Origin: Deltaproteobacteria bacterium
GTDB lineage: Bacteria > Desulfobacterota > DSM-4660 > Desulfatiglandales > Desulfatiglandaceae
Direction: 5' to 3'
Length of the DNA stretch: 6,792 nt
Assembly (NCBI GenBank): GCA_019314425.1
Contig: JAFCZI010000131.1
Coordinates: 1 to 6,792 of the forward strand
Below, piece by piece: positions 537-6,792 of this stretch. The position numbers were made by a program, and so were the translations under genes. Each line of letters opens with the position of its first letter. Position 1 is the stretch's first letter. The notes below the pieces were generated by a model, which saw only the letters and a program-made list of their open reading frames with translations, was not told the origin of the DNA and made no database searches.

Positions 537-2108
537 CTAAACTCTGATTTCCACCTTTCCTTTCAGTACGCTTTTGACTTGTCCGATGGGCACTTCTTCC
601 CGGTGGAAAATGCCTGCGGCCAAGGCTGATTCGGCCTCAGTTTTTGTGAAGACTTCCAGAAAGTGCTCCGGGCCTCCGGCGCCGCTCGATGCAATAACGG
701 GGATGGAAACGGCCCCTTTCACCGCGTTGATGAGTTCCAGGTCAAACCCCCGGGATGTGCCGTCCCGGTCGATACAGTTCAGCAGGATTTCTCCGGCCCC
801 CAGCTTTTCACAGACCTGTGCCAGTGTGATCGCATCAAGATCTCGACCCTCCCGGCCTCCCTTGATGGTGCATTGATACCAGCAATAGGATTCACCGTTG
901 GGTCCCGGGATGTTCGTTTTGATCACCTGGTGTTGGACGTCTTCAGGCTTCCCCACGTATACCCGTCTCGGATCAATGGAAATTACCACGGCCTGGTTTC
1001 CATAGACCCGGGCGATCTCTTCAATGGCGCTCCGGCAGGTTTTAATGCCGGTTTTAAGATGGGCTTCAGCCACCAGAACGGCATCACTGCCGATGGATAT
1101 TTTGTCCGCGCCGGATCTGAAATATTTTGCGGCGACCTCCAAGGCTGTGTAGGTCCTGCCGTCCTTATCCGTGTAATTCCGAATGCCGCCCCCGATGGTG
1201 AGGGGGACAAAGACGTTTTCGGAGGTCTGTCTCAGTACCTCAAGCATGGGCATGTCTTCCAGCGGAAAATCCCTGAATCCGGTGATGTTGAGGAAGGTGA
1301 TTTCGTCGGCGCCTTCTTCGTAGTACCTGCGGGCCAGATCCACCGGTTTGCCGAGGTTCCGAACATCGCCGTTTTCCCTGACATCGTACTGGTCCCCTTT
1401 GGTCACCACCAGATCGCCATGGTCGTTGGTGCGAACGTCCAGGCAGGCAATGATGCGTTTGGCCAAGGCTGTACGGCTTGAAATTTCCGGGGGCAGGGTC
1501 ATTTGACCCTCATTCCTGAGGAAGTTTTCCAGCATGCGAAGCCCTGATTTACCACTTTTTTCAGGGTGAAACTGGGTGGCGGTCACGTTTCCTTTCTGGA
1601 TGGCACTGACAAACCCATAGCCGTAATCAGTGGTGGTCAGTACGGTATCATCCGTAGTGGGTTTAACGTGGTAGGAATGGACAAAGTAAAATTTTTCGTT
1701 ACCTTCAAGACCTGCAAACAGCCTGGATGGTTGTTGAATATTCAGTCCGTTCCAGCCGATGTGGGGAACGGAAAGGTCAGTGGAAAACCGTTGTACGCTG
1801 CCCGGGATGAACCCCAGCCCCGACATGTTCGGTGCTTCCTCACTCTTTTCGAACAAGGCCTGGAGCCCCAGGCAGATGCCCAGGAAGGGACGATCAGCTT
1901 TGAGATAGGCCAGTAGCGGCGCGACAAAATTTTTTCGGTGCAGGATTTCCATCATGTTGCCGAAGGCGCCGACCCCGGGAAAGACCAGCTTTTCAGCGGA
2001 AAGGATATCCTCTTCTGTTTTAACAAGATGGACCTGTTCGCCGAGACTTTCGATGGCGTTGATGACGCTTCTGACGTTTCCGGCGCCGTAATCCAGCAAC
2101 GTGATCAT
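537..2108 (-). CDS. hisHF: Bifunctional imidazole glycerol phosphate synthase, HisH-HisF fusion
   Basis: One 523-residue chain carries both subunits of the histidine-pathway enzyme. The N-terminal glutaminase (about residues 1-200) makes ammonia from glutamine. The C-terminal barrel (about 215-523) uses it to turn PRFAR into imidazole glycerol phosphate and AICAR. Visible glutaminase features are LLDYGAGN at the start, the nucleophile in GICLG (C79), and H181/E183 in QFHPEKSG. The barrel has ACLDVR (D224) and the second catalytic Asp in ISIDPRRVYVG (D379), plus LTIGGGIR and PVIASSGAG. The barrel contains the extra PGPNGESYCWYQ segment after D379, as in yeast HIS7 and plant enzymes and unlike stand-alone bacterial HisF. 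I chose ATG 2108 because GAGGA lies 7 nt upstream and the HisH family begins here. An in-frame ATG at 2162 would add 18 unrelated residues. No other his gene is nearby, and the stop is TAG. Confidence 0.95.
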   Translation of the reverse strand: MITLLDYGAGNVRSVINAIESLGEQVHLVKTEEDILSAEKLVFPGVGAFGNMMEILHRKNFVAPLLAYLKADRPFLGICLGLQALFEKSEEAPNMSGLGFIPGSVQRFSTDLSVPHIGWNGLNIQQPSRLFAGLEGNEKFYFVHSYHVKPTTDDTVLTTTDYGYGFVSAIQKGNVTATQFHPEKSGKSGLRMLENFLRNEGQMTLPPEISSRTALAKRIIACLDVRTNDHGDLVVTKGDQYDVRENGDVRNLGKPVDLARRYYEEGADEITFLNITGFRDFPLEDMPMLEVLRQTSENVFVPLTIGGGIRNYTDKDGRTYTALEVAAKYFRSGADKISIGSDAVLVAEAHLKTGIKTCRSAIEEIARVYGNQAVVISIDPRRVYVGKPEDVQHQVIKTNIPGPNGESYCWYQCTIKGGREGRDLDAITLAQVCEKLGAGEILLNCIDRDGTSRGFDLELINAVKGAVSIPVIASSGAGGPEHFLEVFTKTEAESALAAGIFHREEVPIGQVKSVLKGKVEIRV

Positions 2109-2130
2109 GGGCTGTTCCTCGTAAAGGGGG

Positions 2131-2166
2131 CAGGGTGCAGGATGGCGCTGCCTTTTCTGCACCCTG
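2131..2166. repeat. 10-bp perfect inverted repeat in the hisHF leader
   Basis: CAGGGTGCAG (2131-2140) and CTGCACCCTG (2157-2166) are perfect inverted copies separated by 16 nt. They lie between the predicted hisHF promoter and its ribosome binding site, so the transcript would carry a stable hairpin about 10 nt upstream of the Shine-Dalgarno. No T run follows on the minus strand, so it is not a simple attenuator. It could be a regulatory hairpin, an operator, or a remnant of a dispersed repeat. Confidence 0.5.
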
Positions 2167-4330: not shown

Positions 4331-5365
4331 ATGAAAGCTGAAAATGAAAGATCATCCAATCAGGAAACCGGCTTGATACAGGTTTATACCAGCCCTTCAA
4401 GAAAAACAAATTATGCACCCTACGGCCTGGCCCTTCGGGCTTCCGGCCAGGGGCTTCGCACACTCATCATACATTTTGCCCCCCACGATTTGATGGGCGG
4501 AGAAAAGCAGGCATGTACGTCTCTTGCCCCAAATCTGGTGATAGACGCCTCACCCTTGGATGGTTTCAATATTAAAGAGGGAATGGCGGCGGGAAGGGCA
4601 GGGGATGCCTTTCAAAAAGCCATGGAAGCCGCAGTATCCGGCGTCTTTGATGTGGTGGTCCTGGAGGGCGTCCTGGGGATGGTTTCAGATGAACTGATTC
4701 CGTTGCCTGAGATTTTAAATTTGATGCGGGAAAAAGGACCCCGGGTGGAGCTTGTCCTCACCGGGCCTGAAGCTGCGGATGTGATCATAGAAAAAGCAGA
4801 TTTGGTGACAGAAATGTCTGTGCGCATATCCGCCCGAGGCAAGAATCAAGAACCGATCGAAGTGGTGACCGGCAAGGGAAAGGGGAAAACCACCTATTGC
4901 CTGGGAAAGGCCCTGCTCATGAGCAGTATGAATGTGCCCACTTTTATTCTTCAGGTTGTCAAATCGCCCAAACCTTATGGCGAGATCATGGCCATCAAAA
5001 AATTGCCCGGGCTTGAGATTGAGACCATGGGAAAGGGGTTTGTGGACAAAAAAAATCCCGATGCGGATCCCAGCCACTGGGAAGCGGCCAGGAACGCGTG
5101 GGAGCGGGGAAAGGAAATCATATCGTCCTCCCGATACGGGTTGGTGGTGCTGGATGAAATCAATATCGCTGTCAATTATGGATTTATCCACCCCGATGAG
5201 GTGCGGGACTTGCTGTTAAATAAGCCGAAGGGTGTACATCTCATTCTGAGCGGGCGTTACGCAAAGACCGACGTGATGAAACATGCAACGGTTGTTATGG
5301 AGATGAAAGAGGTTAAACATCCCTTTAAGAATGGCATCGGCGCGAGAAGGGGGATTGAATATTGA
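4331..5365 (+). CDS. cobO: Tandem-domain corrinoid adenosyltransferase (CobA/CobO/BtuR family)
   Basis: The enzyme family transfers adenosyl from ATP to cob(I)alamin or cob(I)yrinic diamide. The C-terminal half (about 175-344) is a standard family member: Walker A GKGKGKTT (181-188), Walker B-like LVVLDEI (271-277), HLILSGR (303-309), and the closing KHPFKNGIGARRGIEY. The N-terminal half (about 14-168) repeats the same fold in order: IQVYTSPSRKTNY aligns with EVVTGKGKGKTTY, FDVVVLEG with YGLVVLDE, and VELVLTGPEAADVIIEKADL with VHLILSGRYAKTDVMKHATV. It has lost the glycine-rich loop and the Asp-Glu pair, so it is probably a non-catalytic duplicate. At 344 residues the protein is nearly twice the usual length of about 180-200. 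GAAGG at 4314-4318 is 12 nt upstream, a loose Shine-Dalgarno. The gene follows moeA by 15 bp and ends with TGA. Confidence 0.88.
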   Translation: MKAENERSSNQETGLIQVYTSPSRKTNYAPYGLALRASGQGLRTLIIHFAPHDLMGGEKQACTSLAPNLVIDASPLDGFNIKEGMAAGRAGDAFQKAMEAAVSGVFDVVVLEGVLGMVSDELIPLPEILNLMREKGPRVELVLTGPEAADVIIEKADLVTEMSVRISARGKNQEPIEVVTGKGKGKTTYCLGKALLMSSMNVPTFILQVVKSPKPYGEIMAIKKLPGLEIETMGKGFVDKKNPDADPSHWEAARNAWERGKEIISSSRYGLVVLDEINIAVNYGFIHPDEVRDLLLNKPKGVHLILSGRYAKTDVMKHATVVMEMKEVKHPFKNGIGARRGIEY

Positions 5366-5390
5366 TGGCGTCGTGAAAAGCAGAAAATAA

Positions 5391-5474
5391 GGGCAGACAC
5401 ACAGGGCGGGCACAAGACCCGCCCCTACGAAACCAACCGGGTTCACCCGTAGGGGCGGACCTGTGTGTCCGCCC
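5391..5474. repeat. 84-bp nested palindromic repeat (MITE/REP-like)
   Basis: The outer arms GGGCAGACACACAGG (5391-5405) and CCTGTGTGTCCGCCC (5460-5474) pair with one mismatch. Inside, CCGCCCCTACG (5419-5429) pairs perfectly with CGTAGGGGCGG (5448-5458). A competing hairpin, GGGCGGG (5404-5410) with CCCGCCC (5418-5424), and a small AACC/GGTT at the tip also exist. GTAGGGGCGGAC-type palindromes are widespread intergenic repeats in deltaproteobacterial genomes (from memory). It begins 26 bp after the adenosyltransferase stop. With no T run it is not a classic terminator, but the structure may shield or attenuate the upstream transcript. Confidence 0.7.
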
Positions 5475-5534
5475 TTCCGTTACGCAACATACGACATGTA
5501 TGCTGACGATCCTGAAAAACCACTACGCCTTGTA

Positions 5535-5631: not shown

Positions 5632-5643
5632 AAAGGAGAGGAG
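5632..5643 (+). promoter_or_regulatory. Strong Shine-Dalgarno that fixes the hgcA start at ATG 5653
   Basis: AAAGGAGAGGAG is followed by a 9-nt spacer and ATG 5653. It is among the strongest ribosome binding sites in the window. It serves a frame that hits TGA after only 26 codons and then continues in the same frame into hgcA. The downstream start candidates are poorer: ATG 5770 has AGG directly abutting it, and GTG 5785 has GGAG 9 nt upstream. Confidence 0.75.
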
Positions 5644-5652
5644 CGTTTAAAC

Positions 5653-6792
5653 ATGAATCAGGGAAAAGATAACTTTGAGATGCTCAAAACCATAGATTCT
5701 CAAGCCGTTCAATCTCCCCCCACCACCTGCTGACCCAAGGGCGGAACGGCTCAGTTGAGCCCGCCGAGGATGGAGCAGCCATTTGTGGAAGGATATGTTG
5801 AGACTCAAACGGGAAGGGTCCCCCGGGTCTCCTCCACGTTGGTGTGGGCCGATCGTTTCGGAAGTATCAAGGCCCGGTGGGGTGTGCGCCGTATGCGGTT
5901 CACCGTTGATCCCGGATTGTATGCCCTTGGTAATCCTGATGAGAAAGCCAAGGTTTTTGTGACTGCCAATTACAAGATGAGCTTTGACCGGCTTCGTGAG
6001 GCGCTTGCCCTCCGCGATGCATGGATCCTGGTGTTTGACACCAACGGCATCAATGTCTGGTGTGCTGCGGGAAAGGGCTCATTCGGCACAGAGGAACTGG
6101 TCCGGCGTATTGAGTTCAGCAATCTGGCACAGATCGTTGTCCACCGGGAGTTGATCCTGCCGCAATTGTCGGGCCCCGGTGTTGCGGCCCACCAGATAAA
6201 GAAGCGTTCCGGTTTTAAGATCGTTTATGGTCCGATCGAATCAACGGATTTGCCGCGTTTCTTAGATGCAGGATGCAAAGCGACACCGGATATGCGAAAA
6301 AAAACCTTTTCCACGAGGGAAAGGACGGTCCTGGTCCCGCTTGAATTGGTGGGGACCCTCAAATGGAGCCTTCTCATACTGCCCTGTCTGTTCTTCGCAG
6401 GGGGCTTTGGCGGGGAAGGGGGCTTCTGGGCCGGAACCATGCGTTACGGCCTGTTTGCCGCAGTTGCCTTTATTTGCGCCATTGTTTCAGGAGCGGTTCT
6501 GACGCCGATTTTGCTGCCCTGGCTGCCGGGGCGTGCTTTTTCCCTTAAGGGACTGATTATGGGGCTGATAACGGCCATTCTGCTTGCCGGTCTCTGGCCT
6601 GGTAATTTCAATGGTTGGGTGGGCGGGATGGAAGTTATCGCGTGGTTTCTTTTGATTCCGGCCTTTTCGGCATATCTGGCCATGAACTTTACGGGTGCTT
6701 CCACCTATACGTCTCTTTCGGGGGTCAGAAAAGAGATGAAGTGGGCGGTGCCCTTTGAGATCGCGGGAGGTGGGGCAGGTTTAATCTTATGG
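5653..6792 (+). CDS. hgcA: HgcA mercury-methylation corrinoid protein, candidate selenoprotein with in-frame TGA (3' end cut by window)
   Basis: HgcA passes a methyl group from its corrinoid to Hg(II), working with the ferredoxin HgcB. In the frame from ATG 5653 there are 380 codons to the window edge, with one TGA at codon 27. The corrinoid domain (about 55-215) has VTANYKMSFDRLREAL and the cap-helix motif NVWCAAGK at 134-141, with C137 as the proposed cobalt ligand. Then come about five membrane segments (roughly 238-253, 264-290, 299-316, 324-345, 363-380+) and NFTGASTYTSLSGVRKEM at 345-362, a C-terminal HgcA hallmark. The N-terminal tail before the core reads SPPTTC-TGA-PKGG. Other local genes use TGA as a true stop, so Sec insertion would need a local signal, and one is visible at 5734-5765. 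Alternatives are a 26-codon leader ORF with hgcA starting at GTG 5785 or ATG 5770, or a Cys codon changed by mutation or error. Identity as HgcA is near certain; the Sec reading is likely but unproven. Confidence 0.93.
5731..5765 (+). promoter_or_regulatory. In-frame UGA with SECIS-like stem-loop
   Basis: After TGA 5731-5733, GGCG (5740-5743) pairs with CGCC (5762-5765). A 4-nt bulge GAAC follows on the 5' side. GGCTC (5748-5752) then pairs with GAGCC (5757-5761) around the tetraloop AGTT (5753-5756). There are 19 nt between the TGA and the loop, and a G occupies the second loop position followed by U. This fits my recollection of the bacterial SECIS description: a short stem, a loop roughly 16-37 nt after the UGA, and G among the first two loop bases, read by SelB. 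The fold was done by eye. Confidence 0.6.

What the first reader, a model, noticed from the sequence alone, without database searches (positions are those of the whole stretch)
5653..5787. HgcA appears to be a selenoprotein: in-frame TGA after a Cys codon near its N terminus
ATG 5653, with the strongest local Shine-Dalgarno, opens a frame reading ...SPPTTC, then TGA, then PKGGTAQLSPP and straight into the HgcA core with no other stop up to the window end. TGA serves as a normal stop in the three upstream plus-strand genes, so genome-wide reassignment is unlikely. The result would be a Cys-Sec pair in the tail of the mercury methylase. Selenolates bind Hg(II) more tightly than thiolates, so such a pair could capture or hand over Hg(II), or act as a redox centre. 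I do not know of a described selenocysteine HgcA. A standard gene caller would miss the start or trim the protein.
Basis: partly seen in the sequence, partly recalled or inferred. Interest (0 to 1): 0.95.

Follow-up and report, generated by a model that had tools for sequence, protein, structure and literature searches.

The report
Selenocysteine-tailed HgcA mercury methylase
The window holds the gene for HgcA, the mercury-methylating protein, with an in-frame TGA after a cysteine codon and a conserved RNA hairpin behind it, so the bacterium is predicted to put the rare amino acid selenocysteine there, as already proposed in print for other HgcA proteins; what the residue does is untested, though it likely helps to handle mercury.

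Summary
ATG 5653 opens a frame with one in-frame TGA (5731-5733, after Cys26) that runs into an HgcA core (NCBIfam NF040863, 452 bits, cut-off 275). The TGA is predicted to be read as selenocysteine. The own genome has selA, selB, a selD with its own in-frame TGA, and tRNA-Sec. Of 99 distinct HgcA loci, 49 have a TGA 14-16 codons before the core; 36 have CC or CxC near that place instead. In those 49 the DNA after the TGA forms one 5-bp hairpin (GGCUC-AGKU-GAGCC): 243 of 243 counted cells are standard pairs, 12 changed on both sides. Such a stem occurs in 48 of 49 Sec rows, 5 of 47 other rows and about 8% of synonymous recodings. Selenocysteine-HgcA is not new: a 2026 review lists it (motif CU), citing Haft and Gwadz 2023, which I could not read. 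Added here: SECIS covariation, at least 8 Sec/non-Sec changes on a tree, loss of Sec in bacteria that keep selA, and that 106 of 120 listed database homologs are too short to hold this residue. The role of the tail is untested; Hg(II) or methylmercury handling is my leading inference.

The parts
5633..5643 (+). Shine-Dalgarno-like AAGGAGAGGAG, 9 nt before ATG 5653
   Evidence: read from the sequence
5653..6792 (+). hgcA, residues 1-380, cut by the contig end; the frame goes on in contig C216 of the same genome for 7 more codons and a TAA stop
   Evidence: TGA=U translation; NF040863 452 bits; C216 carries residues 343-380 at 100% identity and the rest
5653..5733 (+). coding stretch before and including the TGA: N-terminal tail, residues 1-27
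   Evidence: tail residues shared with L017, L018, L021; pN/pS before the TGA 0.14-0.41 in the six pairs among window, L017, L018, L021
5728..5730 (+). Cys26 codon TGC, neighbour of the Sec
   Evidence: Cys directly before the TGA in 38 of 49 Sec rows
5731..5733 (+). in-frame TGA, predicted Sec27
   Evidence: one TGA 14-16 codons before the core in 49 of 99 distinct loci, exactly 15 in 44 of them; Sec machinery in the genome
5748..5761 (+). predicted bacterial SECIS core: stem GGCUC/GAGCC, loop AGUU, 19 nt between UGA and loop
   Evidence: 243 of 243 counted cells paired, 12 changed on both sides; same pairs found without guidance by RNAalifold; geometry fits the published bSECIS rules
5740..5766 (+). 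extended hairpin in this genome (GGCGG...CCGCC below the core)
   Evidence: 27-nt stretch folds at -14.3 kcal/mol; outer pairs next to the core are not general in relatives
6061..6063 (+). Cys137 codon in NVWCAAGK, likely the cap-helix Cys that corresponds to Cys93 of strain ND132
   Evidence: C137 invariant in 51 aligned homologs; role of Cys93 from PMC7305189 passages; the match to Cys93 is inferred

Best explanation
The in-frame TGA at 5731-5733 lies inside an otherwise open hgcA frame and is predicted to be read as selenocysteine, likely directed by the conserved hairpin at 5748-5761, which would give an HgcA whose N-terminal tail carries a Cys-Sec pair that likely handles Hg(II) or methylmercury close to the corrinoid. 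Shown by sequence: the frame, the HgcA core, a TGA at this place in 49 of 99 distinct loci, CC or CxC near it in 36, the covarying hairpin, and selA, selB, selD and tRNA-Sec in the genome. Inferred: SelB would bring Sec-tRNA to this UGA; the tail would be a flexible arm that binds Hg(II) or CH3Hg+ through the selenolate and passes it between HgcB's C-terminal Cys pairs and the methyl-corrinoid.
For: Machinery in the own genome: selB 390 bits, selA 611 bits, tRNA-Sec 70.7 bits, anticodon TCA, selD with its own in-frame TGA, GSGUASK. Relatives: 49 of 99 distinct loci carry one TGA 14-16 codons before the core. SECIS: 243 of 243 cells paired, 12 cells changed on both sides against a shuffle mean of 2.1 (0 of 500 shuffles reach it), slid controls at most 58.7% paired. 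A 5-bp, 4-nt-loop stem is found in 48 of 49 Sec rows, in 5 of 47 non-Sec rows and in about 8% of synonymous recodings. Coding before the TGA: pN/pS below 1 in 12 of 12 chosen pairs (not independent), 0.14-0.54 in 11 of them. 44 of 47 other Sec-HgcA genomes tested have selA over the cut-off. For the metal role: the commonest alternative state is a CC or CxC pair, its second Cys within two residues of the usual Sec distance in 35 of 36 rows; the HgcB of this genome carries CCC and ends in CC; HgcB's C-terminal Cys pair is proposed to deliver Hg(II) (PMC7305189 passages).
Against: The metal role is not tested. Strain ND132 methylates mercury with an HgcA whose cap-helix Cys is residue 93 against 137 here, so it would have little or no such tail. 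L114 and L120 have Arg (AGA) in place of Sec and P0008 has Arg too; P0109, L047, L087 and L096 have neither Sec nor Cys there. The Cys directly before Sec is missing in 11 of 49 Sec rows, and L071 and L115 show no Cys from eight residues before to six after. The shuffle control does not correct for relatedness of the rows, and one of its five measures (further pair types) is no higher than shuffles (235 of 500 reach it). The single-sequence fold of the window is not unusual (z -1.05). 3 of 47 Sec genomes tested lack a full selA match, perhaps because the drafts are incomplete. No protein-level evidence exists here. The structure model was too poor to place the tail (mean pLDDT 55.5).
Confidence: 0.7

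Rival explanations
1. The UGA is read as selenocysteine, but the Cys-Sec pair works as a redox centre (a selenenylsulfide relay or guard for the cobalt and the thiolates), not as a mercury ligand.
For: Cys directly before Sec in 38 of 49 Sec rows and CC/CxC replacements are usual for redox motifs; HgcB, a ferredoxin-like partner, is encoded next door.
Against: 11 of 49 Sec rows lack the neighbouring Cys and two have no Cys near; tails with two separate CC pairs (for example L072, L084, L090) look more like metal binding.
Confidence: 0.25
2. Sec in the tail matters mainly as a selenium switch: without selenium, translation ends at the UGA and no HgcA is made, so methylation follows selenium supply.
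For: The UGA at codon 27 precedes the whole known functional core; 6 of 49 Sec rows have no in-frame start codon between the UGA and the core.
Against: CC/CxC replacements are common in relatives, and 19 of 21 non-Sec genomes tested keep selA; a pure switch would not call for Cys.
Confidence: 0.12
3. The UGA is a true stop of a short leader, and HgcA starts at an internal TTG, GTG or ATG after it, as gene callers draw it.
For: 106 of the 120 listed homologs are 353 aa or shorter, so their annotated start lies after this place; TTG 5755 and ATG 5770 are available here; the loop codon is TTG or GTG in 38 of 49 rows.
Against: 11 of 49 rows have no start codon at the loop position and 6 have none before the core, although the hairpin is kept in the set; the tail before the TGA has pN/pS below 1 in the pairs tested; relatives without TGA are annotated from an upstream Met (11 of the 14 listed homologs longer than 353 aa carry CC there, P0008 Arg, P0109 neither); the nearby stop is TGA in all 49 correctly anchored rows that have one.
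Confidence: 0.02
4. Assembly error or pseudogene: the real codon is TGC/TGT, or the gene is broken.
For: The window comes from a fragmented draft (475 contigs, about 80% complete, 5% contaminated).
Against: A TGA at this place in 48 further distinct loci, with a covarying hairpin; the core is open to the contig end.
Confidence: 0.01

Closest known systems
Selenoprotein HgcA (NF040863, motif CU; WP_250697417.1 in the table of PMC13188914, citing Zhang and Gladyshev 2008 and Haft and Gwadz 2023)
   Same: HgcA with Sec directly after Cys; the table gives CU and one Sec (passage seen; references).
   Different: I saw no SECIS, start or distribution data for it: the 2023 paper is not held and a search of the 2008 paper for three terms found nothing. 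This window is a further member.
Selenoprotein HgcB (NF040864, motif GVGU; same table)
   Same: Partner gene of the same pathway, also listed as a selenoprotein.
   Different: The HgcB of this genome has Cys there (GVGC), and so, read by eye, have the HgcB found next to 97 other loci of the 99; L096 gave no HgcB match.
HgcA of strain ND132 (PMC7305189, PMC11588087, passages seen)
   Same: Corrinoid domain with the conserved cap-helix Cys, and a membrane domain.
   Different: Cys93 there against Cys137 here: about 44 residues fewer before it, so by inference little or no tail.
bSECIS consensus (PMC13188914 section 5)
   Same: Loop 4 nt, stem 5 bp, G in the second loop position, 19 nt from UGA to loop, energy below -7.5 kcal/mol for the extended hairpin.
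   Different: The 14-nt core alone folds at -7.1 kcal/mol, just short of the energy rule.

Membership tests
HgcA (NF040863) | score over the curated cut-off of 275 bits | tested here: met
   452.3 bits, residues 56-380
HgcA (NF040863) | conserved cap-helix motif with Cys (the letters NVWCAAGK are recalled) | tested here: met
   residues 134-141; C137 invariant in 51 homologs
HgcA (NF040863) | hgcB directly downstream | tested here: met
   contig C216 overlaps the window end and encodes a 110-aa protein with two CxxCxxCxxxCP motifs
HgcA (NF040863) | methylates mercury | not testable with these tools
   needs an assay
bacterial selenoprotein | selA, selB, selD and tRNA-Sec in the genome | tested here: met
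bacterial selenoprotein | bSECIS hairpin behind the UGA (published rules) | tested here: met
   loop 4 nt, stem 5 bp, G at loop position 2, spacing 19, -14.3 kcal/mol for the extended hairpin (rules); the 14-nt core alone is -7.1
bacterial selenoprotein | hairpin supported by covariation | tested here: met
   3 of 5 pairs with changes on both sides, 243 of 243 cells paired
bacterial selenoprotein | Cys homologs at the same position | tested here: met
   36 of 99 rows have CC or CxC in the last 26 residues before the core; the second Cys is 15 residues before the core, the usual Sec distance, in 11 and within two residues of that in 35 of 36 (distances, not an alignment)
bacterial selenoprotein | Se found in the protein | not testable with these tools
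   needs mass spectrometry or 75Se
selenoprotein HgcA with CU motif (as listed in print) | Cys directly before Sec in an NF040863 protein | tested here: met
   Cys26-TGA27; table entry seen

The most novel reading that the evidence does not exclude
The Sec tail is a selenium-based mercury-capture arm of HgcA, and because the UGA stands before the whole enzyme, selenium supply gates methylmercury formation in these bacteria; lineages switch the arm between Sec and Cys while keeping the Sec machinery.
Probability: 0.3. Interest if true: 0.8.

Novelty: new member of a known kind. Interest (0 to 1): 0.42.

Why it matters
HgcA is the marker for methylmercury formation, and mercury and selenium are known antagonists (general knowledge, recalled). 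If the enzyme of these bacteria needs selenium to be made at full length, selenium becomes a factor to measure in methylmercury budgets. In practice, 106 of the 120 homologs listed here are too short to hold the residue, so models and alignments of HgcA may have been built without this tail.

Tried and rejected
Assembly error, pseudogene and internal start were tested and set aside. Conserved neighbourhood with the upstream corrinoid adenosyltransferase: a match within 1500 bases before the core was found only here and in L028, 2 of 44 Sec rows with at least 1200 bases upstream and 0 of 44 other rows, so it is not part of the finding. Loss of Sec through loss of the machinery: not supported, since 19 of 21 non-Sec genomes tested have selA (21 of 50 non-Sec rows were tested). 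A single-sequence fold of the window was not informative. The AlphaFold model (Sec given as Cys) had mean pLDDT 55.5 with a poorly modelled corrinoid domain, so nothing was drawn from it. Rfam gave only two sub-threshold matches in the window. HgcB with GVGU was not seen in these loci.

Full report
Observation. The frame from ATG 5653 reads MNQGKDNFEMLKTIDSQAVQSPPTTC, TGA, PKGGTAQLSPP and on to the window end without another stop. NCBIfam NF040863 (HgcA) scores 452.3 bits against a cut-off of 275. The three genes before it on the plus strand (a CN-hydrolase, a MoeA-like protein, a corrinoid adenosyltransferase) end in TGA, so TGA is a normal stop here. The window is contig C183 of a draft genome of 2.8 Mb, 475 contigs, 80% complete, 5% contaminated. 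Contig C216 shares the last 114 bases and goes on with the end of hgcA and with hgcB.

Sec machinery. The genome has selB (390 bits), selA (611 bits), tRNA-Sec (70.7 bits; anticodon TCA by ARAGORN), and selD (387 bits) with its own in-frame TGA in GSGUASK.

Relatives. A scan of genome contigs kept the best 80 of 312 loci that encode a relative. A search of 395 genomes of the phylum found some match in 296, many of them weak; 23 genomes, the own one included, have a match above 160 bits that reads through a TGA (my count from the listing; in 9 of the 23 I did not look where the TGA lies). I used the 80 loci, 29 more and the window: 110 rows, 99 after removing duplicates. By script, 49 of 99 have one TGA 14-16 codons before the QPFV core (exactly 15 in 44), 36 have CC or CxC, 8 one Cys and 6 none in the last 26 residues before the core. 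Of the 6, L053 and L062 are cut by the contig end and L073 was mis-anchored (one search shows GCUPK there), which leaves L047, L087 and L096. Cys sits directly before Sec in 38 of 49; the other 11 are listed. In the CC/CxC rows the second Cys is 15 residues before the core in 11 and 13-17 before it in 35 of 36.

SECIS. Aligned from the TGA to the core, the 49 rows share GGCUC-AGKU-GAGCC. All 243 cells with letters on both sides are standard pairs; 12 cells are changed on both sides (shuffle mean 2.1, reached in 0 of 500), and sliding the partner drops pairing to 33-59%; the count of further pair types is not above shuffles, and shuffles do not correct for relatedness. RNAalifold finds the same five pairs unaided. 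Two further outer pairs form in about half of the rows. A stem of this kind occurs in 48 of 49 Sec rows (not L065), at one place in all 48, and in 5 of 47 non-Sec rows; random synonymous codons for the same peptides give one somewhere in 8% on average (11% for the window, 46.5% in the worst row). Rows without Sec but with a similar peptide, L025 (CC), L056 (CC), L114 and L120 (Arg), keep only parts of it, which I read as decay (L114 still passes the scan). The geometry (loop 4 nt, stem 5 bp, G second in the loop, 19 nt from the UGA, -14.3 kcal/mol for 5740-5766, -7.1 for the core alone) meets the published rules (PMC13188914 section 5) with the extended hairpin. The fold of the window alone is not exceptional (z -1.05).

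Coding before the TGA. pN/pS of the tail before the TGA was below 1 in all 12 pairs of near relatives that I chose, 0.14-0.54 in 11 and 0.96 in one (L020/L028), against 0.17-0.38 in the core; the pairs are few-codon comparisons and not independent. An upstream start with a Shine-Dalgarno-like match of at least 4 nt was found in 40 of 49 Sec rows and not in 9. A protein search scored 7998 candidates, found 7973 and listed 120; 106 of the 120 are 353 aa or shorter where the full protein here would be 387, so they start after this place. These are protein records, so I do not know that each has a TGA. Of the 14 longer ones, 11 carry CC in the tail, P0008 has Arg after Cys, P0109 has neither, and P0033 starts after the place.

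Evolution. On a tree of 98 HgcA cores (L073 left out) Sec/non-Sec needs 13 changes (bootstrap 12-14), at least 8 forced by well-supported branches; the non-Sec side there includes the two rows cut before this place, and direction is not determined. L044 (Cys-Gly-Sec) lies in a supported clade with nine Cys rows. selA is over the cut-off in 44 of 47 other Sec genomes tested (missing in L021 and L030, a fragment in L017) and in 19 of 21 non-Sec genomes tested (missing in L045 and L052) (L089 and 29 non-Sec rows were not tested). So Sec is absent from HgcA in many bacteria that keep selA.

Mechanism. Shown: gene, codon, hairpin, machinery. Inferred: SelB-dependent Sec insertion. Inferred with less weight: the tail as a flexible ligand arm. 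[quoted passage not shown] The HgcB next to this gene carries GVGC, CCC and a final CC, and an HgcA arm with Cys-Sec would add a second ligand. Against: ND132 methylates with little or no such tail (Cys93 there, Cys137 here), and some relatives have Arg or nothing at the place. A redox role and a selenium switch remain open.

Prior work. The review PMC13188914 (passages, outline, section 5, part 2 of the references) lists HgcA NF040863 with motif CU and HgcB with GVGU, citing Haft and Gwadz 2023 for both and Zhang and Gladyshev 2008 also for HgcA. PMC11588087 (passages) says that some hgcA and hgcB homologs may be selenoproteins, citing the 2023 paper. That paper is not held. A search of PMC2398784, the 2008 reference, for three terms found nothing. 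Searches listed no held paper that I could recognise as treating the HgcA SECIS or Sec/Cys turnover in HgcA; I judged this from listings and passages, and the unread 2023 paper may have it. So the kind is known and this window is one more member.

Noticed in passing
L079:1740-1860: HgcB of L079 has a TGA in place of the third Cys of the CCC motif (GVCC-TGA-VVEPKGDE), and a homologous-looking VVEPKG goes on behind it: a possible Sec at a place other than the published GVGU. The 46 nt from the TGA fold at -9.0 kcal/mol.
   Followed up: partly
L072 (downstream hgcB): HgcB ends ...KSSC-TGA-TAG, where most relatives end in or near CC; either a tandem stop or a final Cys-Sec.
   Followed up: partly
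L120 (downstream hgcB): HgcB has a TGA at the third Cys of CCC, but what follows is not like the relatives, so it may simply be a stop.
   Followed up: partly
L114, L120, P0008: Arg (AGA in L114 and L120) stands where Sec is in relatives; the hairpin is partly kept in L114 and L120.
   Followed up: partly
window 4331-5365: Corrinoid adenosyltransferase made of two similar halves (29% identity over 163 positions) before hgcA; near hgcA elsewhere only in L028 among the rows tested.
   Followed up: yes
window 5389-5476: Inverted repeat, 17-nt arms 94% complementary with 54 nt between, in the gap before hgcA; looks like a small repeat element.
   Followed up: no
window 537-2162, minus strand: HisH and HisF in one frame, a fused histidine-biosynthesis protein.
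   Followed up: no
G000:C406:38-910: A second, partial SelB-like match (196 bits, below the cut-off) in the same draft genome, which has 5% contamination.
   Followed up: no
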